DNA of 46,531 nucleotides from a virus, in the IMG/VR virus record IMGVR_UViG_3300033064_001379, positions 1-46,531 of that record; one strand, written 5' to 3'. A model generated the notes under the pieces. The model was not told the DNA's origin, did no database searches, and was given only the letters and a program-made list of their open reading frames with translations. The translations under genes and the position numbers were made by a program. Positions 20,759-42,116 of this stretch are shown one piece after another (the first letter of the stretch is position 1; every line of letters begins with the position of its first letter).

Positions 20759-22985
20759 TTACCATTCCCCCTAACAAAGTCTGTCTGAAAGCGTCCATCT
20801 GGCGTTGGCGCTCATCATCGGCCTTCGCCCTGTCCGCGCGGAATGATGCCGCGCTGTCAAACATGGTCTTCTTCTGGTCTTGGGCCCCGCGGATCTTCTC
20901 TTTCTCAACAGCGCCCTGATTTTCGAGTTGCTGAACAAGGATCTTCGAGATCGCGGCGAGCTTGGCCGTCGCCACCCTGTTCTCGCGATCCGCTTCCCCG
21001 GATTCCAATTCCTGCTGCAACTGCTGGATCATGTCCATCGCCTCTTGCAGATCAGGATCAACGTCGAACTTGAAGAAACGGCTTCCGTCGCGGTATCCGA
21101 GGTTGCCGAAGATCTCTTTGATGATCTCTTCATCGTTCATAAATCTGGCAACGCGATCACCGAATATCTCACCGATGATCTTCGCCGCCGTGCTGATCTT
21201 GTTGAGGCGTTGCATGGGATCCGTCGCCCCGATTCCGACATTAACGCGAAGCAGGAGATCCTTTTCAAGGAGTTCGTCATCAATACGGTTGATGCCATAT
21301 TTGTGCCACAGTTCGGCATTTTCGCCGGCAAGGGTTATCAGAACGACATCATCCTCGAAGCGTTGTTCCAGCTTCATAATCTGGCGTAGCGTCGGCTCCG
21401 CCCAAGTCTCAACGAACGTTCTCAGATCAAGCTCAGAGATCAGATTGGCGGATCCGGAGAGCATTTCCATGCCGCCGACGGTTTCGTTGAGGTGGCGATT
21501 TGCCTGAACGGTCCCGGTGTTGAACTGCCCCGCAACATCGTCGTAGTCGATATTGATGCGGTTTTGCTCTTCGTAACTGGACTGGGTAACATCCCGGGTG
21601 TCGATGGTTTTCACATCGTCAACATCGTTGGCCAGCGTGATACTTCCGGAAACATTGCGGACAAGGCTCCGGAGATCCACTTGCCGTCCACGGCGCACAA
21701 TATACCTCTTGTTCAGGGCCAGCTTGACATTATCCAGACGGAGGTTGACCAGATCGTTGGCTTCCATCTGCAGTCCGGCAACGAGTTCTGGCTTGCCGGA
21801 AGTGTAGGTCTTATGGGTTTCGATGATCACGTTGCCCAGCGAGAACGGGCGCTCGCCCTCGTCACACTGGGGATAGACTTCCGTTAATGGCTTGGGATCC
21901 GAAAGCATCTCCTCTTCGCCCACGGTCCAGAACACCCAATCGCGTCCATTCCATCGGATAATGTTTTCGTGAACCCAGACGATGGAGAATTCGTCAATGG
22001 TCGAATCATCTTCCTTGGAATCTTCGCGATTACCCTCGCGCTGCTGTCTGGTGCTGTCCCAGCCTTGGCGCGTCGATGATTTTTTGAGGGCGGTGCGATC
22101 CACCGGGAGCCATTTGGGCTGGCCGGTCTTCGTATCCGTCATCCTCTGGCGCTCTTCCACCTCATGGACGTACATGGGATGGAGAACGATGATGTAAGGG
22201 CTTGTGGCGATGGGATCACGCCAATCAGCGGCGCGGTCGATACGGAAGTTTTCAATCGGGATCAGGTCGCACGCGGGGCGGTTTTCCACCACTTGCTCTT
22301 CGATAACTTCCCTGAGAATAGGATTGCCCTCGTCGCCCAGCATTGGCTGGCCGGTATTTTCGTCAATCTCAGGAACGTGTTTCTTTATTTTGATGGTGCG
22401 GTATTTCCAGTATTGCTTGGAAATCACCGTGCCGTACTTCTGGCCATCCTGAAACGCACCAACAACAGTTTGGAACCATCTGATTCCTTCGTTCGGGTGG
22501 GTGCTTGTCAGGCGGTGTTGAAGGAGATATTTGCCAATGTCGGAACTTGCATTCGAGCGGGAATCGTTCTTGTTCGCCGCGGTAACAGAGATAACATCCT
22601 CGTTTGAGAAGAATGAGGCGGCAACCTGAGCATCACCCATGCGGATCATGGCTCTGGTTTTTGGCCTGTAAAGTCTGGACTTGCCCTTGTAGGCGTCCGC
22701 GAAATACTTGCTCCCCGGCTGGTGTCGGCTCTGGAAGGCCCGCTCATTCTTCTCCCACTGGGAGCGCAAGCTGGAATCGAGATAGGAGGTGGAATCCTCG
22801 TAGGCATTCTTGGCGAGACCAAGCCAATCCGGATCTTCATCCAGATATGAATCCTCGGCAGCATCTTCCGGATCCATCCCGGGCGTGGCCAGCATGGCTT
22901 TTTGGACACTGCTTAGGCGATCAACGCTATCGCCCGTGCTGGCATCTTCGCCCGATGGCCCATATGGTGTTTTCTTCTTTACCAT
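20715..22985 (-). CDS. Portal protein (P22-like size)
   Basis: The 756-aa protein matches the large podovirus portal class: N-terminal region with YKGKSRLYRPKTRAMIR, a central RNIIETHKTYTSG-like wing (VIIETHKTYTSGKPELV), and a long C-terminal helical barrel rich in Gln and Arg. The size is close to the P22 portal (725 aa). It forms the dodecameric ring at the packaging vertex. It follows the terminase block and precedes the scaffold and capsid, the normal order. GGAG upstream of the ATG supports the start. Confidence 0.85.
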   Translation of the reverse strand: MVKKKTPYGPSGEDASTGDSVDRLSSVQKAMLATPGMDPEDAAEDSYLDEDPDWLGLAKNAYEDSTSYLDSSLRSQWEKNERAFQSRHQPGSKYFADAYKGKSRLYRPKTRAMIRMGDAQVAASFFSNEDVISVTAANKNDSRSNASSDIGKYLLQHRLTSTHPNEGIRWFQTVVGAFQDGQKYGTVISKQYWKYRTIKIKKHVPEIDENTGQPMLGDEGNPILREVIEEQVVENRPACDLIPIENFRIDRAADWRDPIATSPYIIVLHPMYVHEVEERQRMTDTKTGQPKWLPVDRTALKKSSTRQGWDSTRQQREGNREDSKEDDSTIDEFSIVWVHENIIRWNGRDWVFWTVGEEEMLSDPKPLTEVYPQCDEGERPFSLGNVIIETHKTYTSGKPELVAGLQMEANDLVNLRLDNVKLALNKRYIVRRGRQVDLRSLVRNVSGSITLANDVDDVKTIDTRDVTQSSYEEQNRINIDYDDVAGQFNTGTVQANRHLNETVGGMEMLSGSANLISELDLRTFVETWAEPTLRQIMKLEQRFEDDVVLITLAGENAELWHKYGINRIDDELLEKDLLLRVNVGIGATDPMQRLNKISTAAKIIGEIFGDRVARFMNDEEIIKEIFGNLGYRDGSRFFKFDVDPDLQEAMDMIQQLQQELESGEADRENRVATAKLAAISKILVQQLENQGAVEKEKIRGAQDQKKTMFDSAASFRADRAKADDERQRQMDAFRQTLLGGMVNGGNNGADGGSNRT

Positions 22986-28140: not shown

Positions 28141-28154
28141 ATAATCAATAAAAA

Positions 28155-28963
28155 AGCGCGCTCGGATAAAACGGGTGTCTGGATTACGGTGGCTCGCTTG
28201 AATTAACCGGATGTCTACGCTACGGCGGCTCGCTATTGACTATTGGGCGGCTCGGCTCTTTCGACGCGCTATCGTTTAATGGGTGCTTTGTATCAGACGG
28301 CTGAAATCACTCTTTCTTCTCGGTTGATATGTGGCTGAGTGGCACGCTTATGGAAGCAGGGTGCGGTTTGTGGATAAGACTCGCTAATTCTTGCGCGGGT
28401 GTCTTTGCTGAATTGGCGCGCTTATGGAACGCGGGTGATCATTATATGTCTCAACGCGCTTACTCACATCGGATGATGTTACTCATATCGGCGCGCTCGT
28501 GGTAGCCGGATGGTTTTTCTTAATTCACCGTGGCACGCTTCCTTCCATCGGGTGAATAGTTGATGACAGCCTCGCTTTCCATAATCGGGCGTCTCGTCTC
28601 GTTCGGCGCGCTTTTCCACAGCGGGTGAAATAAAAAAGGTGCGGCACGCATATAAGATCTCGGTAGAGGTTATCCGCTCTGGCGCGCTAATTCGATAGTG
28701 GGCGAAATTAAGTGCAATGGCTCGCTGCAACTGACTGGGTGTCTTGAACACGTTGGCACGCTTCGTCGAGCCGGATGACTTTGGTGCGTCAGCGCGCTTT
28801 GTCCCTACGGATGAATTGCCTAGATACGGCACGCTCATGTAAGTCGGGCGATATCTTGATTGGCGACACGCTTGTCCTTCGTGGGAGAAATATGAAGTGA
28901 AGGCGCGCTATTCACGAATGGGTGTCTGACGTATACCGGCGCGCTCGATCGTATCGGATGATT
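28155..28963 (+). repeat. TIGR-like array 1: about 22 guide units
   Basis: Edge boxes GGCDCGCT (8 nt) alternate with loop boxes around YGGRTGNNT (9 nt). Edges begin at 28155, 28191, 28227, 28263, 28299 (degenerate), 28341, 28378, 28415, 28453, 28490, 28532, 28569, 28605, 28643, 28681, 28719, 28755, 28791, 28828, 28865, 28902 and 28938. Most periods are 36-38 nt; two are 42. A regular unit is edge 8, spacer A 9, loop 9, spacer B 10. Examples of A and B: cggataaaa and ggattacggt; tgaattaac and acgctacggc; attgactat and cggctctttc; atcgtttaa and tgtatcagac; ttccataat and cgtctcgttc. All spacers differ. The 36-nt unit with two guide segments matches processed tigRNAs. Not CRISPR: the repeats are too short and come in two kinds. 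Confidence 0.85.
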
Positions 28964-29560
28964 TCTTTACAGTGACCAATTAAACATATCCGGAAAATAA
29001 AATAAATACCAGAAATTTTTTTGCCGAATTAAATGCGCTTAATGATTTTGGGCGAATGTACCTGTGTGGCAATTAATTAAATCATTTCACAGAGGGGAAA
29101 GCAAGGGGGGGACCATATGTAAGATCATTTAATTATAACCCCTTGACGCCAAACAGAAATTTAGGACGCTTCGTTCATCAAGAGGGCTTATCCTTTATGG
29201 CAAAAATAATAAATTAAAATTATGGGGGCAGTAAACATCCCTGCGAGTTCTCTTAATGAAGTCCCTTGACGCAAGCGGTGCGTCGAGACTTGGATCGCGT
29301 TCATATAAAGGTGCCGCCGTACCGCCTAATGCTGCGTTCATTTAATTTGTTGCGGCCTTGCATCCATGCCCTGACCGAAGCCACGAGGAAGAGCGTGCTG
29401 GATTGCTTGTGTTCGGTGGACGGGCCGCGCGCCCCCCCGGAAGTCCCCGCGACTATTCGTAGCAGGATCACGCATAATATGCATTGTGATAAATCAACAA
29501 TGGCTGATCTCTGCGCTTCCCGCCCCTTTCCATGATTATGAAACCCCTCCAACACCACAT
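28964..29560. other. Non-coding region downstream of array 1
   Basis: No frame here has a ribosome site and protein-like composition. It is AT-rich up to about 29240, with an inverted pair ttaattaaat (29073-29082) and atttaattat (29127-29136), and a 13-bp segment aattaattaaatc (29071-29083) that recurs at 30112-30124. Two ccttgacgc copies lie near 29140 and 29263. It may hold an array terminator, packaging site or replication element; nothing decides between these. Confidence 0.4.
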
Positions 29561-29567
29561 ATGGTGT

Positions 29568-30062
29568 CTAATGCTTCGTTTCTGTCGCTGCGGCGATCGC
29601 CGCCCCTGCCGCCGCCCCGATGTCTGTCCGGAGCCAATCAGGAGCCAGATCCGCTGGCTGGACCTTGAGACCGCCGCTGATGTCCACCTGAGCGCGATCA
29701 CCATACTTACTGGGAGCGAGGCGTCCCGCTGCCCATTTCAAGGTGTCAATCAAGACGCGATCAGCGTTTGCTCTCTTTGGGTCTGTGTTTCGAGCAATAT
29801 CAAGCGCTTCGGCAAAGAAACTGTCGGCTTGAGCCGACCGCGCCCGGGCGTAGCGCTCAAAGAACTGCTCTAACTCTTTAGAAGCTGTTCCGTCGTTCTT
29901 TTCGCCCTTTGTCAGCCATCCATAGATTGTTGCCTGATGTGGCATGTCTGTCATGCGGTTTATATCGGTCATTGTTTTACCGTTTGCGATCAGGGCGCAT
30001 ATTTTCATACCGAGTTCGGGAGTGAAGAGAGAAGGTCGTCCACCTTTTGATTTATCAGTCAT
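29568..30062 (-). CDS. Terminase small subunit (Sf6-like)
   Basis: The 164-aa protein has the Sf6-type TerS layout: GGRPSLFTPELGMKICALIA, a helix-turn-helix (MTDINRMTDMPHQATIYGWL), the FFERYARARSAQADSFFAE segment, then LKWAAGRLAPSKYGDR, and an Ala-rich tail. It binds the packaging start site and feeds TerL. Unusually, it is separated from TerL (26428) by the array, the Tat-protein gene and other small genes. Its promoter is probably within 30198-30250. Confidence 0.85.
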   Translation of the reverse strand: MTDKSKGGRPSLFTPELGMKICALIANGKTMTDINRMTDMPHQATIYGWLTKGEKNDGTASKELEQFFERYARARSAQADSFFAEALDIARNTDPKRANADRVLIDTLKWAAGRLAPSKYGDRAQVDISGGLKVQPADLAPDWLRTDIGAAAGAAIAAATETKH

Positions 30063-30197
30063 TTGATTTGTGTCCGGTCATTGGTGGTGTTTGTTTCTTC
30101 CAGATTAAATGAATTAATTAAATCCTGATTTCTTTTTTACAAGTGTGGGGAAGCTGTCTATGTATGAGACTGATATCCCCGAGGGATTATAAGGGGG

Positions 30198-30300
30198 AAG
30201 ATAGCACGGGTTGTTTTGTGTTTGTCAAGGGGGTTAACAGTGTGTTGCAGATAGGTGTTGCATTGTGTGCTACACTCTGTTAACATTATTGTTAATGGGG
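30198..30300. promoter_or_regulatory. Divergent promoter/operator region between TerS and the early operon
   Basis: Rightward: TTGCAT (30258-30263), 17 nt, TAACAT (30281-30286), a good promoter for the 30412 operon. Shared motif copies: plus strand 30267-30284 (GTGCTACACTCTGTTAAC, over the -10) and minus strand 30233-30250 (CTGCAACACACTGTTAAC). A perfect palindrome ttaacattattgttaa follows at 30280-30295. Leftward: TTGACA (complement of 30223-30228) with TATCTT after 19 nt is a weaker candidate for TerS. Confidence 0.6.
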
Positions 30301-30399
30301 CTCTGGGAATAGCTGATCTGGCACGATCCTCCGGCTTGGAGGTGGACCTACCCTAAAGATAATTATTATGTGCATTGGCTTTGATGAATCCCTCTAGCC
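30301..30399 (+). other. Leader of the early operon with a GC hairpin
   Basis: The transcribed leader holds CCTCC-ggctt-GGAGG near 30330-30344, a small stem-loop, followed by AT-rich sequence. No open frame with a ribosome site was seen. It could regulate translation of the first gene or be incidental. Confidence 0.35.
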
Positions 30400-30411
30400 T
30401 TGGAGTTTATC

Positions 30412-30657
30412 ATGGCAATCCAACATCACACGTTTAGCAATGGTGGGCATGTTGTCCATCGTCAAACAATGCCCGGTTCGCTCTGCCGGTTTAGTGTCTG
30501 GTACAACGACATGAACATGGTGCTGGACATCGAACGCATTGACAGACTGCACCGATCATATCCAGCGACCGCCGCGCAACGGGCATACTTTGAGCGGCAT
30601 CTGCCGGTTTGCATACTGCCGATACCGAAACGTAATGCTTGGGCAGATCGCGCCTAA
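30412..30657 (+). CDS. Small hypothetical early protein
   Basis: An 81-aa protein starting at the ATG at 30412, preceded by GGAG. It contains SLCRFSVWYNDMNMVLDIERIDR and is His-rich at the N-terminus. First gene of the rightward operon, followed by a CCCCC-TTCG-GGGGG stem-loop. No family recognised. Confidence 0.6.
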   Translation: MAIQHHTFSNGGHVVHRQTMPGSLCRFSVWYNDMNMVLDIERIDRLHRSYPATAAQRAYFERHLPVCILPIPKRNAWADRA

Positions 30658-30749
30658 ACCCCAACCTCTCCCCCTTCGGGGGGATTCTTTCAAGCCAATG
30701 CATCTGAATTTAGGTGAGCCTGTCTTTAACCTTAGAGGGAGTACCACCG

Positions 30750-31154
30750 ATGTTTAAGCCATTTCCGACTGAGACACCATGGGGCCGCGCCGATACCGTT
30801 GAACAGATTGCCGAGGGTATGTGGTTTTGCTCTACGCCTTCTCATGGCGGCGTTGCGCTTGACTTCAATCATGCTGAGCGCGTCCCTAACGACATCGTAC
30901 CATTTACCGGGGACCGTCGTTTCTGGGAAGAGGACTGCGACTGGGTTATTCCGCTGGCGTTGTTCCGCGATGAACTGCCGCCGAGCAAGCGCAACGATAT
31001 CGCATTGATCATGCGTTGCCTTGAGCATCATCCTATCGAAGCCCAGCAGGCCATCCATGCGGCGACCGACGGCGCATTGCTCTCCGAGATGATGGAGACG
31101 CCCGAGACACTGACCGACACCCTTCGGGCTGTCGGCTTCAACGTCCCTGCTTAA
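30750..31154 (+). CDS. DUF7007-like protein
   Basis: The 134-aa product begins FPTETPWGRADTVEQIAEG followed by MWFCSTPSHGGVAL, a pattern I associate with the DUF7007-type family found in phages and plasmids of Pseudomonadota. It also has WEEDCDWVIPLALF and an acidic C-terminal helix. Its function is unknown. AGAGGGAG lies upstream of the ATG. A hairpin (CCGCCacgtTGGCGG region) follows the gene. Confidence 0.65.
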   Translation: MFKPFPTETPWGRADTVEQIAEGMWFCSTPSHGGVALDFNHAERVPNDIVPFTGDRRFWEEDCDWVIPLALFRDELPPSKRNDIALIMRCLEHHPIEAQQAIHAATDGALLSEMMETPETLTDTLRAVGFNVPA

Positions 31155-31215
31155 CCTTCCAAGGGTCCGCCACGTTGGCGGGCTCGCCTAAATTCAGCAG
31201 AGAGAGGAGAGGACG

Positions 31216-31752
31216 ATGACCAAATCATTTGGTTTCTTAGTTGAGACAGTCAACGTTTACGGAACGGACAAGGTTCAGGCGCGCGTTATGGTCCGCGAGA
31301 GCGACCGTCAATCGCCGCTGAATCCGGGCTCCGATCCTTTTTACCATTGGCATGAGGGATGCCCCAAGGCTCTTGAGGGCTTGTTGTTCGACGGGCTCCG
31401 CTTGGAGTGCTGGTATTCTGATATGGGTACTGTTGTGCTGGTGGGCGGAACGACACCGGAATACATGGATGTTTATTCCATTGACGAGCGCAAGGCCGTT
31501 GCCATGGCCAAGACGTTGAAACGTGTCAATCGGGCGATCCAGAAAGCCGAGGCGAACGAGCCCGGAGATGCTTTCGTTGCAATGGCGAAGGCTTTGGGTC
31601 TGACCTTTGCGGTAACGCGAGTCAAGAATGACCGGAATGGATCATCCTACGAGGATTCGGATTGGTTCTTTTCGTCCATCGAATATGGCCGCAATGTTCT
31701 GCGGCGTATGATCGTTGATATCCATCCCCACAAGGATGAAGCCGCTGCGTGA
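31216..31752 (+). CDS. Hypothetical early protein
   Basis: A 178-aa protein with a beta-rich N-terminal half (FGFLVETVNVYGTDKVQARV; LVGGTTPEYMDVY) and a helical C-terminal half ending in an alanine-rich tail. The strong site GAGAGGAGAGG precedes the ATG. Followed by a GCCGGGG-CCCCGGC stem-loop. No family recognised. Confidence 0.6.
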   Translation: MTKSFGFLVETVNVYGTDKVQARVMVRESDRQSPLNPGSDPFYHWHEGCPKALEGLLFDGLRLECWYSDMGTVVLVGGTTPEYMDVYSIDERKAVAMAKTLKRVNRAIQKAEANEPGDAFVAMAKALGLTFAVTRVKNDRNGSSYEDSDWFFSSIEYGRNVLRRMIVDIHPHKDEAAA

Positions 31753-31818
31753 CATTTGCTCTGCCGGGGGTTGAGGATCCCCGGCATTGTTAATTTCACT
31801 GAGAGATGAGAGAGGACG

Positions 31819-32019
31819 ATGAAAACAAAGTGTGAAGACTGCCGGTACTTCGAGGAAAAGCCACCGGGCGCAGCGAGCGGCGAGTGCCGATACCATCCGC
31901 CGCGCGCGATTGCCAACGTAGGCAATGACGACCGGACCTTTAACCATACGGTCTGGCCTGAGGTTGTTCATTCTGATTGGTGCGCCCGAGGAACGCCCCA
32001 CGATCTATCCAACGGTTAA
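31819..32019 (+). CDS. Small Cys-rich protein (CxxC..C..C type)
   Basis: The 66-aa product has CEDCRYFEEKPPGAASGECRY, then PPRAIANVG and a terminal SDWCARG, four cysteines likely to bind zinc. It is a paralogue in pattern of the proteins at 42489-42713 and 45840-46103: an N-terminal CxxC, a middle Cys, a YPP or equivalent, and a final WC. Function unknown. Confidence 0.6.
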   Translation: MKTKCEDCRYFEEKPPGAASGECRYHPPRAIANVGNDDRTFNHTVWPEVVHSDWCARGTPHDLSNG

Positions 32020-32190
32020 ACCCCTAAACTGGGGGGAAACGGTCGAATTTGGCTGTTTCCCCATTTTTCCGACCGCTACAGAGCGTCGCACAGAGCCAAG
32101 TCGATGCATTTAGGTGTACGGGTAGCAGAGATAATGAAGGCCCTGAGCGGGCTTTTATTTTTTGTGCCACCACCAAAGGAGAGGAAGACC

Positions 32191-32835
32191 ATGTTTAAGA
32201 TTCAGACCAGATACTTGCTCGCGGCGTTGCCTTTCGTATCCACCGAGGAAACCCGCTACTATTTGACCGGTGTTCATTTTGAAACGCACAAGGACGGCGT
32301 TATTGTCGTTGCGACCGACGGACACGTAGCCTTCGCCGCACTCGACAACACCGGCAGCGCGCCAAGTGAATCCGCGATCTACCCACTGACCAAGGAATTG
32401 TTGGCAGCGTGTAAGGCCCAGCGACACGACGGTAGCGACCGCTACGCGCTGATCGACGGAAAACAATGGCAAGTCGGAGTTTATCGTGACGATGTTTTTG
32501 ATCCGCTGGCTATTGGCATGATCGAACCTATCGACGGAACGTTTCCAGATTGGCGGCGCATTGTCCCCAACGGTATGACGGGAAGCGCCGGGGGCGTGAC
32601 GTTTAACCCGAACCTGATGGTCCGCTTCGAGAAGGCCGCGAAGGCTTTGGGAGTTAATGGCTGCACGTTCCTGTTAAACGGTCCCACTGATCCGGCGCTG
32701 GTTGGCTTTGGGACTTCCGTCAAGGCTTTCGGTGTGTTGATGCCAATGCGGGGGCCTATTGGTGAAGACCCTGCGGGCTGGCTTCGCAAACCGAAAGCCA
32801 AGGCCAAGCCGAAGAAAGCCGCAAAAGCCGCTTAG
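32191..32835 (+). CDS. Sliding-clamp-like (DnaN-like) protein, short form
   Basis: The 214-aa protein has TRYYLTGVHFETHKDG followed by VVATDGHVAFAAL, the signature strand and DGH loop of bacterial beta clamps (aTDGhRLA), and a second domain-like segment (TFPDWRRIVPNG). It is far shorter than host DnaN (about 366 aa), so it would need three subunits or a different ring. C-terminal Lys/Ala tail is basic. AAAGGAGAGGAAG lies upstream of the ATG. A replication role fits the DnaB and initiator genes nearby. Confidence 0.65.
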   Translation: MFKIQTRYLLAALPFVSTEETRYYLTGVHFETHKDGVIVVATDGHVAFAALDNTGSAPSESAIYPLTKELLAACKAQRHDGSDRYALIDGKQWQVGVYRDDVFDPLAIGMIEPIDGTFPDWRRIVPNGMTGSAGGVTFNPNLMVRFEKAAKALGVNGCTFLLNGPTDPALVGFGTSVKAFGVLMPMRGPIGEDPAGWLRKPKAKAKPKKAAKAA

Positions 32836-32901
32836 TGATATCAACCTTGCGCCCCCTCAGGGGGGCGTCTTGTTGATACCACCAGAGAGAGGAAGAAAAC
32901 C

Positions 32902-33348
32902 ATGAAGACCTTTTTGATTGATCCGACCACCCGCAAGGTTTCCGAGGTTGACTACGACGGGGACTTTCGCAAGATCTACGAACTGATCGACTGCCGCATG
33001 TTTACGTGCGTCTATCCAAAGGGCTGGCCTGATGGTTCAGTTCTGTTTCTGGATGACGAGGGCCTGTTTGTCGAGGGGCAGACCTTTTTCATTCTCGAAG
33101 GATATCCCCAGCCGCTCGCCGGTAAGGCTCTGGTCATGGGGACGGACGAGGAAGGTGAGAGCATGGACGCGCCGGTTTCACTGGCTCTCCTTAAAACGCC
33201 CAACCTGATTCGCTGGTGTGATCGCAACACCGCCGCGCTGTATGCGAAGATGGGCTTCTTTGACACCACGGTCACGAGTTGGGATGGTGATGGTGGCGTT
33301 GCTGAGACGAAGAAACTCACCGACGGCGACAAACTTTTCAACGGGTGA
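32902..33348 (+). CDS. Hypothetical early protein (DUF3846-like)
   Basis: The 148-aa protein starts with a basic/acidic N-terminal beta region (DGDFRKIYELIDCRMFTCVY) and LFLDDEGLFVEGQ, somewhat like the DUF3846 phage family. The assignment is tentative. A GAGAGAGGAAG site precedes the ATG; a GCGCCCCCTCAGGGGGG stem-loop lies between it and the clamp gene. Confidence 0.55.
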   Translation: MKTFLIDPTTRKVSEVDYDGDFRKIYELIDCRMFTCVYPKGWPDGSVLFLDDEGLFVEGQTFFILEGYPQPLAGKALVMGTDEEGESMDAPVSLALLKTPNLIRWCDRNTAALYAKMGFFDTTVTSWDGDGGVAETKKLTDGDKLFNG

Positions 33349-33349
33349 T

Positions 33350-33382
33350 AATCCCCCTGCCGCCCAGAACGGGCGGTTTTGG
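33350..33382 (+). terminator. Stem-loop after the clamp/DUF3846 genes
   Basis: CCGCCC-agaa-CGGGCGG followed by TTTTGG on the plus strand resembles an intrinsic terminator with a short T tract. It lies just upstream of array 2, limiting read-through on the strand opposite to the array's inferred sense strand. Confidence 0.5.
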
Positions 33383-33422
33383 AATTACCACCGCCAATGA
33401 AGGGAAATCAACCGTCAATGCC

Positions 33423-33680
33423 GAGCGACCATATTTCAACCAATGCCGCGTAGCGAGCCAACGAGCTAGAGACACCCAGATTACCTAAGCGAGCCACGGC
33501 TCAAGACCTCACCCTAGTCCCACTAGCGAGCCACCTTTCTTCTTATTTCACCCGACGGGGACAAGCGAGCCATTACCCCCAACAACACCCACTAAAATAT
33601 AGCGCGCCGTAGATTTGTAGACACCCAATAACCGGAAGCGCGCCATCTTTTCCAAGACATCCAGTGAGAAGTAGCGACAA
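33423..33680 (-). repeat. TIGR-like array 2: about 7 guide units, opposite orientation
   Basis: Read on the minus strand, edges GGCGCGCT or GGCTCGCT lie at 33637-33644, 33601-33608, 33564-33571, 33525-33532, 33488-33495 and 33452-33459, with degenerate outer edges at 33673-33680 and 33423-33430. Loops (TGGGTGTCT, CGGGTGAAA and relatives) sit between them. Spacer A is 9 nt in every unit; spacer B is 10-13. Examples: acttctcac and tggaaaagat; tccggttat and acaaatctac; taggtaatc and ctagctcgtt. None matches array 1. No clear promoter is seen upstream on the minus strand; it may be driven from further right. Confidence 0.8.
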
Positions 33681-33699
33681 CACAACGAAAGGAAAGACC

Positions 33700-34329
33700 A
33701 TGACAGAGAAAACCGTTTCCTTGGCGTGTCCAAGCTGCGGAAATAACCAGAACTTTTCCGCCAAGTTTGCTTTGACCGTCACAATCAATCCAAGCGGCGA
33801 TTTTACCCCGCATTTCAACAGGCTTGACGAGTTGGCAGCAAGCGAAAGCATCGTCTGCGACGAGTGCGGATACAAGGCCACACCCATCGACTTTAAGCCT
33901 GATCCCAAGGAGGAGCGCTACGCCGATATCGAGGTTATGCTTGCTGAAAATTCGTCCCAGTATGCGAGCATCACCGTTTGCGGACCCGTTGATGATCCTG
34001 AAAAGTTAGAATCCATCATCGTAGATTGGATCGCGGACGGGGGGAATTGCATCCCGTGGGAAAACGGCGAAAACGACTTCGGCCTTCGCATTGTCGAAGC
34101 CAACTGTATGCGTCTCGCTGGCGGGACACAGCTACTTCAAAATGTCAGCCTCGATCCCGAGTATGACAAACTGTATGCGTCGGCTGATCTGGTGCGCGAT
34201 ATCGCCGCATCCAATGCGCCCTTGGTACACAGGTTTTACACGGACAAGGCCCGGGAGATCTTCCCTGAGCTAAATCCAAACAAGCCGAATCCGCTACCCG
34301 ATCCAGAGCCCCACTCTGAGGACGGGTAA
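33700..34329 (+). CDS. Zinc-ribbon hypothetical protein
   Basis: A 209-aa protein starting MTEKTVSLACPSCGNNQNF, with a second pair VCDECGYKATP near residue 55, so a four-Cys zinc ribbon split by a beta segment. The C-terminal part is mixed alpha/beta (DPEKLESIIVDWIADGGNC). AAAGGAAAG precedes the ATG. Last gene of the rightward early operon. Confidence 0.65.
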   Translation: MTEKTVSLACPSCGNNQNFSAKFALTVTINPSGDFTPHFNRLDELAASESIVCDECGYKATPIDFKPDPKEERYADIEVMLAENSSQYASITVCGPVDDPEKLESIIVDWIADGGNCIPWENGENDFGLRIVEANCMRLAGGTQLLQNVSLDPEYDKLYASADLVRDIAASNAPLVHRFYTDKAREIFPELNPNKPNPLPDPEPHSEDG

Positions 34330-34336
34330 CGGAAGA

Positions 34337-34370
34337 GAGGGGGAGCCTAACGGTTCCCCCTCTTTTTTTT
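34337..34370 (+). terminator. Rho-independent terminator
   Basis: An 11-bp stem, GAGGGGGAGCC with GGTTCCCCCTC, a TAAC loop, and eight T residues. It closes the rightward early operon and separates it from the leftward tas operon that ends at 34410. Confidence 0.9.
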
Positions 34371-34409
34371 GCGCTGGTTTTTGATGGATGGATAAAGGTT
34401 AGCGGCGAT

Positions 34410-35090
34410 CTATTTTAATTTATCTATATTCACGGGCTGGCAACAAAACGTCACGGCGACCACCCACGGGTTCAAGTCCCAGCCGTACCCGCGCTTGGCG
34501 TTTAGACCATCCCAAAGGAACATGAAAGCATCCCCCGCGCACACTTGCCCTTCAAAATCATCATCTTCGGTTCCGTTGAAATAGCGATCCTCTGTTATTT
34601 CACGATGGACACCGCCAGCACAATCAGCCCCGACGATAACATTTTGGTGCAGGATGCCTTCAGACAGCGCGTCAGCCTCTCTAATATCCTGCACCCGCTC
34701 AATCCTAACTTCGACAACGGTTAGGGTTAATCTCGATGCCCAGCGGGGCATGTGGATAGAGGGGCGCGGGTCTTGCTTTCCATCCGGCCAAACGTGCCGA
34801 GACGTTATCCCGTCTGCCACGTATTGAAGCATTCCGCCGCTGCGCGTGGTTGTCTCGCGCACCCAAAGCCTATCCCCAATGAGATAGGGCATTTTCTGAG
34901 TGAGGAGAAATTTTGGATCGTCTCGCCTCAAGCGGAATTGTGTCGGCCCCCCGGGCGCGGCATAGAGCCCGTCGAAATAAAACCCATTCCCAGCCGGTTG
35001 GAGCTTGATAATCCGTCGCGTTTGAAGCTTTCTGTCCTCAATAATCGCGCGGACCATGGGGCTGGAAAAAAGGATTGGTCGATCAACCAT
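34410..35090 (-). CDS. ASCH-domain-like phage protein
   Basis: The 226-aa protein has RPILFSSPMVRAIIEDRK, TRRIIKLQP, GDRLWVRE, PRWASRLTLTV and LWDGLNAKRGYGW, the hallmark blocks of a very common phage family containing an ASCH (RNA-binding-like) domain. Its role in phages is unproven. The start is the ATG at 35090 (AAGGGAAAA upstream). It is the last gene of the operon headed by tas. Confidence 0.8.
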   Translation of the reverse strand: MVDRPILFSSPMVRAIIEDRKLQTRRIIKLQPAGNGFYFDGLYAAPGGPTQFRLRRDDPKFLLTQKMPYLIGDRLWVRETTTRSGGMLQYVADGITSRHVWPDGKQDPRPSIHMPRWASRLTLTVVEVRIERVQDIREADALSEGILHQNVIVGADCAGGVHREITEDRYFNGTEDDDFEGQVCAGDAFMFLWDGLNAKRGYGWDLNPWVVAVTFCCQPVNIDKLK

Positions 35091-35091
35091 T

Positions 35092-35316
35092 TCATTTTCC
35101 CTTCCGCTGATCCAGCCGCAACAACCGCCGAACGTGATGAAGTCCCTCCGCAAACATTTCCTTCGTAGTCTCGGACCTTTTGGTTTTGTAAAAATTAACA
35201 GGCGTGTAATCGCCGGGGTCCAACTGCATTCCCCCCCAAGGCCACGTACTCCTGACGCCCTCTTTCAGACAGGCATTGCGCCGCGCGCCACGATAGGTGC
35301 TGCTATGTCTCGCCAT
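35092..35316 (-). CDS. Small basic hypothetical protein
   Basis: A 74-aa, strongly basic protein (MARHSSTYRGARRNACLK... RLLRLDQRKGK) that overlaps the preceding gene and ends 2 nt before the ASCH start. Basic character suggests nucleic-acid contact, but there is no motif. Confidence 0.6.
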   Translation of the reverse strand: MARHSSTYRGARRNACLKEGVRSTWPWGGMQLDPGDYTPVNFYKTKRSETTKEMFAEGLHHVRRLLRLDQRKGK

Positions 35317-35503
35317 TTTCCAATCCCCATTCAGATTTCAAATTCTGGTCAGCCGACCACTCGTGCCGCGCCTCTTTTGCGTTGTGGTTTTCGTTGCTTC
35401 TTTTATCAATGAACCGCCATGCTTCGGCATTTGTCGCAAAGGGTCCGAACGTCCATTCGCCGTCCTTCACAAACCATTCTCCGAGTTGCTTGACAGGTGT
35501 CAT
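35303..35503 (-). CDS. Small hypothetical protein
   Basis: A 66-aa protein starting at the ATG at 35503 (GAGGAAGAA upstream) with GEWFVKDGEWTFGPFATNAEA, a beta-hairpin-like pattern. The start overlaps the stop of the 36-aa frame upstream by ATGA. No family recognised. Confidence 0.6.
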   Translation of the reverse strand: MTPVKQLGEWFVKDGEWTFGPFATNAEAWRFIDKRSNENHNAKEARHEWSADQNLKSEWGLENGET

Positions 35504-35610
35504 TTCTTCCTCAAAAAACTCCGGTCGCGAAGGCATCGGCTATTCTTAGTCCCACCTAACTGGGCTACCCTCCACCGGATCTCCAACTCAAGGCTTTTTA
35601 TTCCAATCAT
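35500..35610 (-). CDS. Possible 36-aa basic protein downstream of tas
   Basis: A short frame, MIGIKSLELEIRWRVAQLGG then a basic tail, fills the gap between tas and the next gene and couples to it by ATGA. The ribosome site is weak (GGGG). It is supported mainly by packing. Confidence 0.4.
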   Translation of the reverse strand: MIGIKSLELEIRWRVAQLGGTKNSRCLRDRSFLRKK

Positions 35611-35632
35611 CGGAGCCCCGCCGCACTCCCAA

Positions 35633-36553
35633 CTATGCGGCTTTCTTGTGTTTCTTGCCGTGCTTGGCCTCGTTGTAAGGCGGCGCGACCACCAGACCTT
35701 CGAGCGGACGCCAAGCGTTATATAATGCAACAAGAAAACATTTGACCATGTAGCGTAAGGCCGCATTATGCCGTCGTCCCTTCGACCATTCCGGCGTCTT
35801 GCCGTCCTCGCGCAATCCCTGCTTCGACGGGTCCGTTTCGAGCCGGTGTTTGTAATCGTTGTAGATCGTGGAATATTTATTCTCCCCGGCCCGCAAAAAC
35901 GATGACGCGAGAACACCGATCAGCTTGGACTTGAGGAAAGGGTTGAACGTGATGCTGTTGCGCTTCTTGCGCTCGCCGTCGGCGGCATCATACTCGACTT
36001 CGATCTGGTGTTCCTTGCGCCGGGATCGCCCGCGTCCATCCTGAGCAACGTCCAGACCGGCATAGCGCCACAGGCTCGACGGATACTCGGCTTTGTGGAT
36101 ATCGAACTCGGAAAGGATGACACCGGCCATCGCGGGGCCGATCCCCTTCACGCCTTTCAGGAACTCGGTGTAGATCTCGAATTCCTCCAACACCTTACCC
36201 ATCCGGGCAAAGTGCGTGGATTCGGCGCGTTCGATCTCGGCATACTGGGCATACAGGCACAGTTCCGAGTATTCGGTGATGACTTCGAGGCCGTCGAACT
36301 TCGCAAACTGCCGGGGCGTCGGGATCTTGAATCCCTCGACAACGCCATCGGTGATGCGGGTATAGGCCAGACGCAGGACTTCCAAGATGTTCTTGGCTTC
36401 CTTGTCCAACTCCTCCTCGGACTGACCGGGGCCCTGCCCCAGCTTCGCCCGGAAGTTCGCGGCGATACGGTTGCCCATCTGGATCCGCAATTTTTGAAGA
36501 TCATAGGCGCTGCGAACGATGGTCCGCAGAACTTCACGCTTACTGTGACTCAT
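35633..36553 (-). CDS. Tas-like (Nop / IS110-C-terminal-like) protein without nuclease domain
   Basis: The 306-aa protein begins at the ATG at 36553 with AGGAAGG upstream. Residues about 5-130 are helical. Residues 133-150 (KGVKGIGPAMAGVILSEF) and 161-169 (LWRYAGLDV) are the helix-hairpin-helix and YAGLD signature of the IS110 transposase C-terminal domain. A basic loop (RGRSRRK, 174-180) follows, then the C-terminal helix (RRHNAALRYMVKCFLVALYN) and a Lys-rich tail. The DEDD RuvC-like N-terminal domain of IS110 transposases is absent, as are HNH motifs. The Nop domain of Tas proteins is structurally related to this IS110 region and binds box C/D-like guide RNAs. Two guide arrays nearby support a nuclease-less Tas, probably a programmable DNA binder. 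An automatic pipeline would call it a transposase. Confidence 0.85.
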   Translation of the reverse strand: MSHSKREVLRTIVRSAYDLQKLRIQMGNRIAANFRAKLGQGPGQSEEELDKEAKNILEVLRLAYTRITDGVVEGFKIPTPRQFAKFDGLEVITEYSELCLYAQYAEIERAESTHFARMGKVLEEFEIYTEFLKGVKGIGPAMAGVILSEFDIHKAEYPSSLWRYAGLDVAQDGRGRSRRKEHQIEVEYDAADGERKKRNSITFNPFLKSKLIGVLASSFLRAGENKYSTIYNDYKHRLETDPSKQGLREDGKTPEWSKGRRHNAALRYMVKCFLVALYNAWRPLEGLVVAPPYNEAKHGKKHKKAA

Positions 36554-36588
36554 GGATTTGATCCTTCCTATTAACATTGAACCTTGCC

Positions 36589-36616
36589 ATATTAACAGAA
36601 CGTCGCAGCAATGCAA
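36589..36616 (-). promoter_or_regulatory. tas promoter with shared operator
   Basis: On the minus strand TTGCAT (36616-36611), 16 nt, TAATAT (36594-36589) drives tas. The 18-bp motif CTGCGACGTTCTGTTAAT (36608-36591) covers the -10, so a bound protein would block it. The -35 hexamer is the same as for array 1 and the early operon. Confidence 0.65.
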
Positions 36617-36725: not shown

Positions 36726-37673
36726 TTAAACGGGCTTAAAATCGCCCGGGGCTGGTTTTTCTCCCTCTTCCCCCGACATATGCCAAAGATACAAAGCTTG
36801 CTCAAATGGAGTCCGGTCTTTCCGATCAACCTCGCGGTGATCCTCCCCGGGCTCGACATCGTATTTGCCGTCAAAGATCTTCTCAAGGTTCTCGGGGTTC
36901 ATTATCCAATCAATCCCCATCCGGAAGTCTGATGTTTTGCCGGTCAGGAAGGGGGACATCGAAATCCTCAGGCACAGTTGTCGCCACTGGTCAAAATCGC
37001 CGTCGCAAAAATCATGGAAGGTGGTCGCTAATCGCGCTCTCCGTTTTATCGAAGTCTTCGTGATTTTATGAACCTTCGTATCCTGTAAAATCTCGTTCCA
37101 TATCCGAACCATTTCTTCCGACAAATCAGGAGCCCTTGGACCCTTTTTTCTCCCACTCGAATTTCCATGTTTTTCGGACATGGTATTTTCTTCTTTCTTA
37201 TCCTTGTTTTCTAAACCTTTCTTTAGTCTTGTCCCATTAAGTGTCCCATTAAGTGTCCCATCGCCCTCTAAATTTATTGTCCCATTATAATTTTCAAGGT
37301 TTTGGAAGGCATTGTATTTAATGACTTTTATCGTCGTTACAGGTGTCCCGTTTTTTTGATAGCTGAGTGTCCCATTAAGTGTCCCATTAAGTGTCCCACG
37401 ATGAATTGAGATCATCGCCTCATTTTCGAGCTTTTTTACGAACCTCTGGACGGTTGATTTTGACCATTTAAATTGATCCGCCATCCTCCTGATTGATGAA
37501 AAGAATTCCCCCCTATCTAAATTGATGGATCCGTATTTTGTTTCCACCTTGTGGGCTTTATATGCGGCCTGAGAAATCATCCACAGCCACGCCTCGCGTT
37601 CCGTAAATGCCTTGTCACGGAAAACGCGGTGCGTGAATACGCTGCGATCAATGATGATGTATCCGGACGCCAT
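36726..37673 (-). CDS. Replication initiator / helix-turn-helix replisome protein
   Basis: The 315-aa protein opens with a winged-helix domain (EAWLWMISQAAYKAHKVE; FSSIRRMADQFKWSKSTVQRF) typical of phage replication organiser proteins. A middle linker contains GTLNGTLNGTL-type repeats encoded by DNA iterons. The C-terminal domain (SEEMVRIWNEILQD; FLTGKTSDFRMGIDWIMNPEN) resembles the helicase-loading domain of lambda O/DnaD-type proteins. It ends where DnaB begins upstream in the same operon, fitting a loader/initiator. Confidence 0.75.
   Translation of the reverse strand: MASGYIIIDRSVFTHRVFRDKAFTEREAWLWMISQAAYKAHKVETKYGSINLDRGEFFSSIRRMADQFKWSKSTVQRFVKKLENEAMISIHRGTLNGTLNGTLSYQKNGTPVTTIKVIKYNAFQNLENYNGTINLEGDGTLNGTLNGTRLKKGLENKDKKEENTMSEKHGNSSGRKKGPRAPDLSEEMVRIWNEILQDTKVHKITKTSIKRRARLATTFHDFCDGDFDQWRQLCLRISMSPFLTGKTSDFRMGIDWIMNPENLEKIFDGKYDVEPGEDHREVDRKDRTPFEQALYLWHMSGEEGEKPAPGDFKPV
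37229..37402. repeat. Iteron array inside the initiator gene (candidate origin)
   Basis: A 12-bp iteron, GTGTCCCATTAA, occurs in tandem at 37229-37264 (three copies, outer ones slightly degenerate), singly at 37277-37288, partially at 37343, and in tandem again at 37367-37402 (three copies). The sequence between the clusters is AT-rich. This copies the lambda plan, with origin iterons within the initiator gene. Confidence 0.7.
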
Positions 37674-40313
37674 CTATTGCTTCCACATATCACCAAAGCG
37701 GACATGGGCTCCATCGAAGTGAAGCTTCACGGTCCCGGTTGGTCCCTGCCGCTGTTTGGCGACAATGAGTTCGGCTACGTTGGCGACTTCCGCCTTATGG
37801 CTCTCAAACCGTGAAAGGCGATCAGCGAAGGAATCCATTGTCTCGTTGGTTTTCTTTGTGGGGGGCTCCTCTCGGTCCATATAGTATTCTTCGCGATAGA
37901 CGAATATCACGAGATCAGCATCCTGTTCGATGGAGTTGTGGACGATAATACCGTTGGCAACGAAGTTGTGGGCGTCATCATCTACTTCTCTATCAAATAC
38001 CTCACCTATGCCCATTGGGGTGATGCTTTCCAAGCGATCCCACCAAATGGATGATGAGGTAAGCCAATCGAGATTAGTTTTACCCGCATCAATTTTTCCA
38101 AGAAATTTACTCAGGTCACTTTGGCTTATCCGTTTTTTTTGATCCCGATAACCAAGGGCGTTTTGGCTGATACCATTCTGGCGAGAAATTTCTATGAGTC
38201 TTTTTGACACCCACACACCAAGCCTGTTTCCGTGGTTTGAACCCTTGGCCGAACAATCCATCTCTTCTAACTTGCGGCCCTTCTCGCCCGTTAAACGCAA
38301 TGTTTTTCTAAGACGGCTTAGGGTTGGGTTATCTTGCACTTGGACCGTGAATATGGTGTGGTGGTGTTCGTGTTTTTTCTTTTTGTTTTCATCAATGTAA
38401 GCAACAATTCCGAGGCGCAGAAAACACCACAAAACTTGGTGGGCTAAGATTTTACTGCTCGTTGCAAATTTAACAGCGCTCCGTTGCGTGGTAAACAGCG
38501 GCACACTTCCATCAGTGTCAATAAGACCGCCTAATATTTCTGCAACCGAGTGATTATCGGCTGATTTCATAAACCAATCAGGAATGTACTTGTCGAATGA
38601 CTTTCTTCCCCAAAGGTCGTTCTCCCTCAGCCAATCCTTGCAGGGGTTTCCCGCCGACGTTCTTACCGGACCTGCCGTAATATCGTATTGCCAGACAGCC
38701 GCGCTGTGATGGTGATGGGGTCTTGGGGTTAACCCAAAAATGCGCTCCGTTTCTCTAACAAAATCATTTGCCAAAAGCTTGTCTGAACAAATGAATGAAG
38801 GGGATGAGAGGCCCAACATCGACCCATTCCCAAGCATCCAACCAATCCAACGGGCCTCTGAAATCCTCGTAGCCTTGGGGGGTTCCGGTATCTTTGCGGC
38901 CAAGGCTACGGCATGGTCACGGGTTATATTTTCAGCGGGAACCCAACCACGGTCAGTCAGAATAGGATGGTCCATAGTGCAATCAATAAACCGCCCCGTT
39001 TGAAGAGCAACCCTGATCAGTTTGCTCGGTCTTTTTACAAGATTTTTGGAATCTGCCATGACGACCACACTATCCTTGTTCAATACACTCACTAATTTAC
39101 GTGAGTTATCATTGTATTGAACACCCCTAGGCGTTGTCAATAATGTTGTCTCGCAAGACAGACACCCAGATTCCCTCAGATCAGACAATAGCGGTCGCTT
39201 GTTGTCACGTTGCTCGACGGCCCGCGAAAGCTGGGACAAAAGGATGACCTGAATATCCAACTCTTTCGCTAGGTTTTTCAGTTCCCGTGTGATCTCCGAT
39301 ATTTCTAATGTCCGCTGTCCCTTGTACCGGCTTTCCGCCTGTAGAAGCTGCAGATAATCAATGACAACGAGATCAAGCCCTATTGTCTTCTGCAAGCGCC
39401 GTGCGCGTGTCCGGATGTTTGAGACGGTCAGGGATGTTGAATCGTCAACCCGGATAAGGGAGTTTTTAAGCGCCCCTGTAGCCTCCATAAGGCCACCCCA
39501 TTCGACCGTTCCTATATCCCCGTCACGTAGTCGGGTAAGGCTTATGGATGATTGGTTGGCGATCAGACGATAGGCCAACTGTTTCTTGGTCATTTCGAGA
39601 CTGAACACCGCCGCGATCTTGCCCGCTTTTGTTATGTTCTGAGCGATGTTGACGGCAAGGGCTGTCTTTCCCATGGAGGGACGGCCAGCGACGACGGTCA
39701 GGATTCCCTTTTCCAAACCAGCGATCAGCTTGTCCAGATCATGGAAGCCCGTGGATAGACCAACAGTTTTTGTTTCGGATTTGAATTTGTCTTCGATCTC
39801 GGAGATTGCCTCATCAACAGCATCGTCAACCTCGGACAGTTCGCCGCGCTCGTCTTCCTTCAATAAAGAGAGAACCTGTTTTTCAAGCCAATCAACATCA
39901 TTGGCCGCATCTTTCTCAGGATCCGAGTCGTAGCACCGCTCAACCAGTTCCTCACCGAAGTCGATGATCTGGCGGCGCAGATACAGATCCTTGATGACCT
40001 TGGCATATTCGAGGGCGTTGAGCCGACCGACGGCAGAGCCCGCCAACTCCATCAGATATTTTGCGCCACCAACCTCCTCAAGAGCGTCCTGAGTTTCAAA
40101 GAATTCCCGTAATGTGACGGGATCTGCAGTCCGCCCTTTTTTTATAAGGCTCTCACAGGCTTGGTAAATCAGGCCGTTGGGACCGTAGGCGAAGCTCTCA
40201 GGCGATATTAGCTCCGGCAGATCATCCATCAATGCGTTGCGGACGAACAGCGCCCCCAGAAGCGCCTTCTCGGCCTCGACGTTGGCTGGGGGATTCTGGA
40301 GATCAAAGGACAT
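37674..40313 (-). CDS. dnaB: Replicative helicase DnaB with intein
   Basis: The extein matches DnaB: an N-terminal domain starting NPPANVEAEKALLGALF, Walker A GRPSMGKTALAV, FSLEMTKKQL, DLVVIDYLQLL and VILLSQLSRAVEQR, then after the intein SIEQDADLVIFVYREE. Spliced length is about 470 aa, standard. It unwinds the phage fork. GGAGGG precedes the ATG at 40313, 6 nt before it. Confidence 0.9.
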   Translation of the reverse strand: MSFDLQNPPANVEAEKALLGALFVRNALMDDLPELISPESFAYGPNGLIYQACESLIKKGRTADPVTLREFFETQDALEEVGGAKYLMELAGSAVGRLNALEYAKVIKDLYLRRQIIDFGEELVERCYDSDPEKDAANDVDWLEKQVLSLLKEDERGELSEVDDAVDEAISEIEDKFKSETKTVGLSTGFHDLDKLIAGLEKGILTVVAGRPSMGKTALAVNIAQNITKAGKIAAVFSLEMTKKQLAYRLIANQSSISLTRLRDGDIGTVEWGGLMEATGALKNSLIRVDDSTSLTVSNIRTRARRLQKTIGLDLVVIDYLQLLQAESRYKGQRTLEISEITRELKNLAKELDIQVILLSQLSRAVEQRDNKRPLLSDLRESGCLSCETTLLTTPRGVQYNDNSRKLVSVLNKDSVVVMADSKNLVKRPSKLIRVALQTGRFIDCTMDHPILTDRGWVPAENITRDHAVALAAKIPEPPKATRISEARWIGWMLGNGSMLGLSSPSFICSDKLLANDFVRETERIFGLTPRPHHHHSAAVWQYDITAGPVRTSAGNPCKDWLRENDLWGRKSFDKYIPDWFMKSADNHSVAEILGGLIDTDGSVPLFTTQRSAVKFATSSKILAHQVLWCFLRLGIVAYIDENKKKKHEHHHTIFTVQVQDNPTLSRLRKTLRLTGEKGRKLEEMDCSAKGSNHGNRLGVWVSKRLIEISRQNGISQNALGYRDQKKRISQSDLSKFLGKIDAGKTNLDWLTSSSIWWDRLESITPMGIGEVFDREVDDDAHNFVANGIIVHNSIEQDADLVIFVYREEYYMDREEPPTKKTNETMDSFADRLSRFESHKAEVANVAELIVAKQRQGPTGTVKLHFDGAHVRFGDMWKQ
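37935..39164 (-). mobile_element. Class 1 intein with LAGLIDADG endonuclease in DnaB
   Basis: The element is 410 aa, starts with Cys (CLSCETTLLTT) after LRESG and ends VVHN before Ser, so standard Cys1/Asn-terminal splicing. Block B has the TMDHPILT motif. Endonuclease helices WIGWMLGNG and ILGGLIDTDG are intact. The site, just before SIEQDADLV, is a known DnaB insertion position. Confidence 0.9.
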
Positions 40314-40887
40314 CACCATCCCTCCGGAAATCCTTGGAGTTCAGCCAGCTAATCGTTGTTGATTCCGTCCGGTGTCTCTCCCAGACAAACCAGCCGTGAT
40401 AGGTTTTGCCGCTGGGCCGTTTGCCGGTCCAGTTCCGGGGATACATGATCAGACGATTGGAAAACAGGTGAACACGGGTTGGCGGATTATCCTTAAAGAA
40501 GTTTTTATATCTCCGCTGTCCGCACAGCCACTCAACCCGCAAGAGGAAAGCCGCCTTCACCGGACCAAGGGAGAGGGCGTGTTCGATGATCTTTTCCGCA
40601 ATCTTATAAGGCGGGTTAGTGATGATGTTTGGAAACTCGACACCCCCTGTATTTAAGAAATCCCATCCCCCAAGAACATCGTATTTTGGGAGACCAAGAG
40701 GATCCCCGAATAGGGTTGATGCAAAAACATCCTTGGCATACCCGCAGCCACGCAGGGTGTCGGCCATCTCTCCACCACCCGCACACGGCTCCCAAATTTC
40801 TCCTCCAAAAGCCTCAACTGATAAAAGCGCCCTCGTCGCCTCCCTTGGTGTCACGTAGTCGTCATCTTCCGGCCTCGTGTGCGTCAT
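40303..40887 (-). CDS. DNA adenine-methylase-like protein
   Basis: This protein (194 aa from the ATG at 40887, GGGAGAGG upstream) has EPCAGGGEMADTL (SAM-binding motif I) and ITNPPYKIAE (motif IV, NPPY), typical of N6-adenine methylases. It may protect phage DNA from host restriction. The recognition site is unknown. It overlaps the RuvC-like gene and DnaB. Confidence 0.75.
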   Translation of the reverse strand: MTHTRPEDDDYVTPREATRALLSVEAFGGEIWEPCAGGGEMADTLRGCGYAKDVFASTLFGDPLGLPKYDVLGGWDFLNTGGVEFPNIITNPPYKIAEKIIEHALSLGPVKAAFLLRVEWLCGQRRYKNFFKDNPPTRVHLFSNRLIMYPRNWTGKRPSGKTYHGWFVWERHRTESTTISWLNSKDFRRDGDVL

Positions 40888-41873: not shown

Positions 41874-41964
41874 GATTAACCTCTAAAAAAGGTGGGGCCG
41901 CTTTCAGGAGAGGATTTGAAAGCAGCCCCGAGTTTCAACAGGGAGGTTTATTCTTGATTTTGGT

Positions 41965-42034
41965 TGCGGGGGTCGGATTTGAACCGACGGCCTCGTGGTT
42001 ATGAGCCACGCTATCTACCACTGATATACCCCGC
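41965..42034 (-). tRNA. tRNA-Met (CAT anticodon), short acceptor
   Basis: On the minus strand the segment folds as a cloverleaf: acceptor GCGGGG/CCCCGC, D arm TATC-AGTGGTA-GATA, anticodon arm CGTGG-CTCATAA-CCACG, T arm GTCGG-TTCAAAT-CCGAC, discriminator A. The acceptor stem is 6 bp rather than 7, giving 70 nt. CAT means Met, or Ile if the C is modified to lysidine. No CCA is encoded. Confidence 0.85.
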
Positions 42035-42116
42035 GTCATGTCCTCTCCAAACACGAATAGGCGGACGCCCTGTGGTCAGGCTCATAAAGGCGCACAGAGC
42101 GTTAAGGGTATTACCC

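What the first reader, a model, noticed from the sequence alone, without database searches (positions are those of the whole stretch)
28155..36553. TIGR-Tas-like RNA-guided system in a phage genome
Two arrays of alternating 8-nt and 9-nt boxes with 9-nt and about 10-nt variable segments, and a 36-nt basic unit, accompany a 306-aa protein whose C-terminal half resembles IS110 transposases but which has no nuclease. This is the combination reported for TIGR-Tas: arrays processed to 36-nt RNAs with two spacers, read by a Nop-domain protein. A nuclease-less version would be a programmable DNA binder, perhaps silencing host or rival-phage genes.
Basis: partly seen in the sequence, partly recalled or inferred. 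Interest (0 to 1): 0.96.

Follow-up and report, generated by a model that had tools for sequence, protein, structure and literature searches.

The report
Phage TIGR-TasA RNA-guided DNA binder
This phage carries a nuclease-free TIGR-Tas system, a recently described kind of RNA-guided DNA-binding machine; it is a genuine but ordinary member of that family, with an unusual layout in which two guide arrays sit away from the protein gene.

Summary
The finding is real, and it belongs to a kind already described in 2025 (TIGR-TasA, PMC12045711). The window has two guide arrays: about 21 units at 28156-28968 and 6 units at 33452-33678. The 36-nt unit is edge repeat AGCGNGCCR, 9-nt spacer A, loop repeat AGNNACCCR, 9-nt spacer B. 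Chance gives 0.01 such matches; 16 are present. The repeats are essentially those of Salicola phage CGphi29, whose array was shown experimentally to make 36-nt tigRNAs. The 306-aa protein is a nuclease-free Tas protein: its AlphaFold model matches solved TasH and TasR best. Across related arrays (about 4,400 units), edge positions covary specifically between the two ends of one unit (p about 6e-45), as expected if each unit becomes one RNA with paired ends. In 212 of 213 loci with both parts the nearest array is on the tas strand, median distance 35 nt; the window is the exception (opposite strand, 1,992 nt). No natural target was found in this genome or in 3.1 Mb of TIGR-phage DNA. A codon-wobble idea about spacers failed on more data.

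The parts
28156..28968 (-). TIGR array 1, about 21 units (17 called automatically, about four more by eye in the stretches 28271-28348 and 28613-28688); the 3' end is a truncated edge repeat AGCGCGC (28156-28162) followed by TTTTTT
33452..33678 (+). TIGR array 2, 6 units and a truncated edge repeat AGCGAC (33673-33678), ending 21 nt before the start codon of the next plus-strand gene
35633..36553 (-). tasA gene, 306-aa nuclease-free Tas protein (helices 3-122, the presumed coiled coil; RNA-binding Nop/IS110-like part about 126-300; beta hairpin 184-200)
36558..36597 (.). two copies of a 19-21 nt repeat (TTGAACCTTGCCATATTAACA) just upstream of tasA, a possible operator
   Evidence: function not tested
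36726..37673 (-). DnaD-like helicase loader / replication initiation gene upstream of tasA on the same strand (context, not part of the system)
37674..40319 (-). DnaB-like replicative helicase (context)

Best explanation
A TIGR-TasA system of a tailed phage. The two arrays are transcribed into precursor RNAs, which are cut in the middle of each edge repeat into RNAs of about 36 nt (half-edge, spacer A, loop repeat, spacer B, half-edge), whose two ends pair. A dimer of the 306-aa TasA protein binds one such RNA through the CC(A/G) box C and the AG box D, and the complex opens double-stranded DNA where spacer A pairs with one strand and spacer B with the other. As the protein has no nuclease, it would stay bound and bend or block the DNA: a programmable roadblock or repressor aimed at DNA other than the phage's own. 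Shown here: array anatomy, guide strand, end-pairing covariation, protein family and fold, absence of a recognised nuclease domain, absence of close self-targets. Inferred from the family (PMC12045711): transcription, processing, dimerisation, DNA binding. Not shown: targets and biological effect.
For: Array: 16 pattern matches against 0.01 expected. Same repeats as Salicola phage CGphi29 (AGCGAGCCA / AGACAACCA, downstream of tasH on the same strand, ending in a truncated edge and a terminator), the SpTIGR locus that gave 36-nt tigRNAs in PMC12045711. Protein: sequence match to TasR 9mty (E 9e-10) and TasH 21kl (E 1.4e-7); AlphaFold model pLDDT 84.9, pTM 0.79 with the 11 best PDB matches all TasH or TasR (E 5e-8 to 2e-5), then IS621. 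No HNH or RuvC domain by Pfam in it or in 23 relatives, and only helices plus isolated bridge residues in residues 3-122. Linkage: 232 tas homologues in the fetched loci, up to about 61% identical to the window's protein. Covariation: edge i position 6 = A goes with edge i+1 position 3 = T in 32 of 40 cases in 22 loci (background 79 of 3,988; p = 6e-45), and not at offset 0 or +2; position 7 / position 2 peaks at the same offset +1 (p = 1e-32). No self-target with at most 1 mismatch.
Against: Both arrays lie away from tasA (2.0 and 6.7 kb), and the nearest is on the opposite strand, unlike 212 of 213 loci. The array units are less regular than in most relatives (sixth-lowest share of exact 36-nt units among 174 loci with 10 or more units), so partial decay cannot be excluded. 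No promoter signal above chance and no expression data.
Confidence: 0.95

Rival explanations
1. The system is a decaying remnant: tasA is intact, but the arrays have drifted apart from it and lost regularity, so few or no guides are made.
For: Arrays detached and on other strands than in relatives; only 41% of called units are exactly 36 nt, sixth-lowest of 174 loci; some edge repeats carry departures such as AGCGAGGCT and AGCGCGTTG.
Against: Box C is kept in almost all units and the edge repeats of array 2 are all canonical. Other loci have equally irregular arrays, and 14 loci have arrays with no tas within the 3 kb or more held on either side, so neither feature is proof of decay. The tas ORF is full length and keeps the family's invariant residues.
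Confidence: 0.12
2. A TIGR-TasA system whose guides regulate the phage's own genes rather than foreign DNA.
For: The two arrays lie in different gene blocks (plus-strand block and minus-strand late block), which would suit regulation; one guide (33601-33636) has a site with 2 mismatches and a 1-nt gap just upstream of the terminase small subunit start (window 30063).
Against: No site with 0 or 1 mismatch in the window or, for other TIGR phages, in their own held DNA; the 2-mismatch count for own loci (7) is not clearly above shuffled guides (2-5).
Confidence: 0.08
3. The arrays are an IS110 bridge-RNA-like or other repeat unrelated to Tas, and the protein is an IS110-type transposase.
For: Pfam Transposase_20 hit; PHROG 4285 is labelled transposase.
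Against: No DEDD catalytic domain found in the 306 aa; TasH/TasR are much better structural matches than IS621; the same arrays flank the homologues at a median 35 nt and match the CGphi29 TIGR array.
Confidence: 0.01

Closest known systems
TIGR-TasA (nuclease-free Tas with dual-repeat array; FpTIGR of Flavonifractor plautii, PMC12045711)
   Same: Solo Nop-type protein, dual-repeat array, 36-nt unit, 9-nt spacers, no nuclease.
   Different: Here there are two arrays detached from tasA, the nearest on the opposite strand; the repeat sequences belong to the AGCGNGCC type.
SpTIGR-TasH of Salicola phage CGphi29 (HQ634153 / NC_020844; PDB 21kl, 9w02-9w04, 9vzx)
   Same: Edge and loop repeats essentially identical (AGCGAGCCA, AGACAACCA); detectable sequence and structural similarity of the protein.
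   Different: TasH carries an N-terminal HNH nuclease (PMC12045711); its array follows tasH on the same strand. The paper counts 16 variable nt per guide for SpTIGR against 18 assigned here.
TIGR-TasR (PDB 9mty)
   Same: Same Nop fold, CCA box C and paired unit ends.
   Different: TasR has an N-terminal RuvC nuclease; its box D is UG, here AG.
IS110 family RNA-guided recombinases (IS621, PDB 8wt6) and box C/D Nop proteins
   Same: Shared RNA-binding fold.
   Different: Much weaker match (E 5e-3 and worse); no DEDD domain found, no K-turn RNA looked for or seen, arrays instead of a single bridge RNA.

Membership tests
TIGR-Tas (dual-repeat) | Two alternating 8-12 nt repeats separated by 9-nt spacers, unit near 36 nt | tested here: met
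   in the window units are 36-42 nt, 41% exactly 36 nt
TIGR-Tas (dual-repeat) | Box C (CCA) and box D motifs shared by edge and loop repeat | tested here: met
   Edge and loop both begin AG and end CC(A/G) in 3,238 clean units; box D is AG, not the UG of TasR
TIGR-Tas (dual-repeat) | Ends of one processed unit pair with each other (covariation between neighbouring edge repeats) | tested here: met
   peak at offset +1; tested on the arrays of the related loci, the window alone has too few variants
TIGR-Tas (dual-repeat) | Tas protein with Nop/IS110-type RNA-binding domain and coiled coil | tested here: met
TIGR-Tas (dual-repeat) | tas gene adjacent to the array | tested here: inconclusive
   Met in the relatives (median 35 nt, same strand); in the window the arrays are 2.0 and 6.7 kb away
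TIGR-Tas (dual-repeat) | Array ends in truncated edge repeat and terminator | tested here: inconclusive
   Truncated edge plus TTTTTT at 28150-28162 and truncated edge at 33673-33678, but no hairpin terminator called there
TIGR-Tas (dual-repeat) | 36-nt tigRNAs bound to the protein | not testable with these tools
   needs small-RNA sequencing
TasA (nuclease-free subtype) | No HNH or RuvC nuclease domain | tested here: met
   No such Pfam hit at E up to 1 in 24 proteins; residues 3-122 essentially helical in the model
TasH | N-terminal HNH nuclease | tested here: not met
IS110 transposase | N-terminal DEDD (RuvC-like) catalytic domain | tested here: not met

The most novel reading that the evidence does not exclude
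One TasA protein is supplied in trans by two arrays in two different transcription units, array 2 within the plus-strand gene block (next to replication-type genes) and array 1 at the head of the minus-strand late gene block, so that the phage uses different guide sets at different stages of infection.
Probability: 0.2. Interest if true: 0.6.

Novelty: new member of a known kind. Interest (0 to 1): 0.38.

Why it matters
TIGR-TasA is the commonest but least understood form of TIGR-Tas; its targets and its benefit to phages are open questions in the founding paper. This locus and the set collected here (about 300 array loci, 232 tas homologues, redundant contigs included) confirm the guide architecture by covariation at scale, show that the guides do not aim at their own phage, or at other TIGR phages more than chance, in the DNA I could search, and supply a case in which guide arrays must act in trans. 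The near-identical guides shared between related phages are material for a proper target search.

Tried and rejected
(1) Codon-wobble idea: near-duplicate guides in the first 2,909 units seemed to differ at positions 3 or 6 apart, suggesting coding targets (23 of 57 within-spacer distances divisible by 3). On 3,238 clean units it vanished (19 of 71, expected 25%). Rejected. (2) Guide targets in TIGR-phage DNA: an apparent excess at gap 0 (27 sites) was partly one guide hitting seven related contigs; counted per guide on 3.1 Mb it is 28 against 18-31 in shuffled guides. Rejected. (3) Targets in related Vibrio phage D279: nothing above chance. (4) Targets of two guides of a Sphaerochaeta MAG array, one in 139 genomes of its family and one in four MAGs: none. 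(5) A guide conserved in several related phage contigs searched in all IMG/VR: 21 hits in five unrelated phage groups with different gaps, about what chance gives by my estimate. (6) Spacer A resembling spacer B (palindromic targets): slight excess only, probably base composition, as the shuffle was not done within loci. (7) Single-sequence search of IMG/VR with the window protein found nothing; searching by array pattern worked. (8) A defence-system library had no match to the protein.

Full report
What is there. The window is a 46.5-kb virus record of IMG/VR with a tailed-phage gene set: large terminase, portal, major head protein (54% identical to that of phages of Vibrio crassostreae), DnaB-like helicase and a DnaD-like loader. 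Array 1 occupies 28156-28968 and array 2 33452-33678; the 306-aa protein is at 35633-36553 on the minus strand. The pattern edge-gap-CC-gap-edge occurs 16 times, only in the two arrays, where dinucleotide-preserving shuffles give 0.01.

Unit anatomy and strand. In 700 clean 36-nt units from related virus contigs the consensus is AGCG[A]GCC(A/G) - 9 nt - AGNNA(C)CC(A/G) - 9 nt. Both repeats end in CC(A/G), the box C of TIGR repeats (CCA in TasR; PMC12045711), and begin with AG in the place of box D (UG in TasR). The strand is confirmed twice: in 212 of 213 loci with both parts the nearest array reads AGCGNGCC on the strand of the tas gene, and in Salicola phage CGphi29, the experimentally studied SpTIGR locus, the array AGCGAGCCA/AGACAACCA follows tasH on its strand and ends in a truncated edge and a terminator (for the paper).

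Covariation. If each unit is cut in the middle of the edge repeats, the 3' half of edge i and the 5' half of edge i+1 lie in one RNA. Edge position 6 = A is followed by position 3 = T in the next edge in 32 of 40 cases in 22 loci, against 79 of 3,988 otherwise (p = 6e-45); the association is absent within the same edge and at offset +2. Positions 7 and 2 give the same maximum at +1 (p = 1e-32), with a weaker background at other offsets that probably reflects relatedness. The caller allowed at most one departure per edge, which hides double changes within one edge but treats the other offsets alike. The paper reports the same pairing for TasR arrays; here it is shown for the AGCGNGCC type.

Protein. 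Pfam sees only the IS110-type Transposase_20 domain above its cut-off. Sequence comparison finds TasR (9mty) and TasH (21kl). The AlphaFold model from 24 homologues (pLDDT 84.9, pTM 0.79) matches TasH and TasR in its 11 best PDB hits and then IS621. No nuclease domain is recognised in any of the 24. It is therefore TasA by the definition of PMC12045711, which calls TasA the most common effector.

Layout. Median distance between tas and nearest array is 35 nt in 213 loci; the window is the extreme (1,992 nt) and the only one with the nearest array on the opposite strand. Fourteen other loci have arrays with at least 3 kb held on both sides and no tas there, so detached arrays are not unique. 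The window's units are more irregular than most. Array 2 ends 21 nt before the start of a plus-strand gene (ATG at 33700), and array 1 lies between the terminase small subunit and the late genes, all on the minus strand. Trans action is thus needed; whether the two arrays are expressed at different times is open.

Targets. The target form A followed by the reverse complement of B was deduced from the paper's cleavage rule (8-nt 3' overhangs); the opposite order was also tested. No guide of the window, nor of the other loci, has a site with 0-1 mismatch in its own held DNA. Across 3,860 unique guides and 3.1 Mb of TIGR-phage DNA the number with such a site equals that of shuffled guides. Searches in a Vibrio phage, in Sphaerochaetaceae genomes and other MAGs, and for one conserved guide in all IMG/VR were negative. 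Many held contigs are partial and true hosts are unknown, so this limits but does not settle the question.

Array evolution. Guides recur between related phages and within one array with 1-3 changes (clean units: 90 pairs at 3 or fewer differences against 6-12 for re-paired guides), which points to inheritance and duplication of units with drift. A codon-like spacing of the changes seen at first did not hold.

Verdict. Observation confirmed, interpretation supported, not new in kind. Interest is moderate: the locus is a clean TIGR-TasA member with an unusual layout, and the open questions (targets, benefit, timing) are those of the whole family.

Noticed in passing
window 41961-42035: tRNA-Met gene (CAT anticodon) on the minus strand, the only RNA family match in the window.
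   Followed up: no
window 37230-37261 and 37366-37398: Two short tandem arrays of the 12-mer TGTCCCATTAAG inside the DnaD-like replication gene (36726-37673); such iterons may be the phage's replication origin.
   Followed up: no
window 36558-36597: Two copies of a 19-21 nt repeat directly upstream of tasA, possibly an operator.
   Followed up: no
L055:5175-6128, L104:255-1196, L085:2165-3145, L078:5088-6218: Relatives of TasA carry different insertions around the beta hairpin that follows the GLDV motif: cysteine-pair (zinc-ribbon-like) inserts in three and an insert with a QIDHIEPISGN stretch, HNH-like by eye, in L078 (no Pfam HNH hit). The site may accept effector modules.
   Followed up: partly
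L199, L111, L047, L082, L183, L205: Near-identical guide units at different places of one array (for example L199 units 0/14 and 4/16), suggesting growth by duplication and drift rather than by acquisition of new sequences.
   Followed up: partly
L236, L245, L116: Related phages share guides that differ by 0-3 nt while the repeats around them differ by up to 6 nt.
   Followed up: partly
L389 (PP438412.1, Microcystis phage Mvi-JY20, record about 22090-22490): A TIGR array (edge TGCGAGCCA, loop CGAAACCCA) with a terminator, not listed as a feature, downstream of the CDS annotated as hypothetical protein XAI95461.1, a Tas relative of a phage with a known host.
   Followed up: partly
L286-L290: Homologous tas genes with arrays on contigs binned with Hydrogenedentota, Omnitrophota, Neomarinimicrobiota, Sphaerochaeta and Desulfobacterales MAGs, so the type is spread over phages of very different hosts if the binning is right.
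   Followed up: partly
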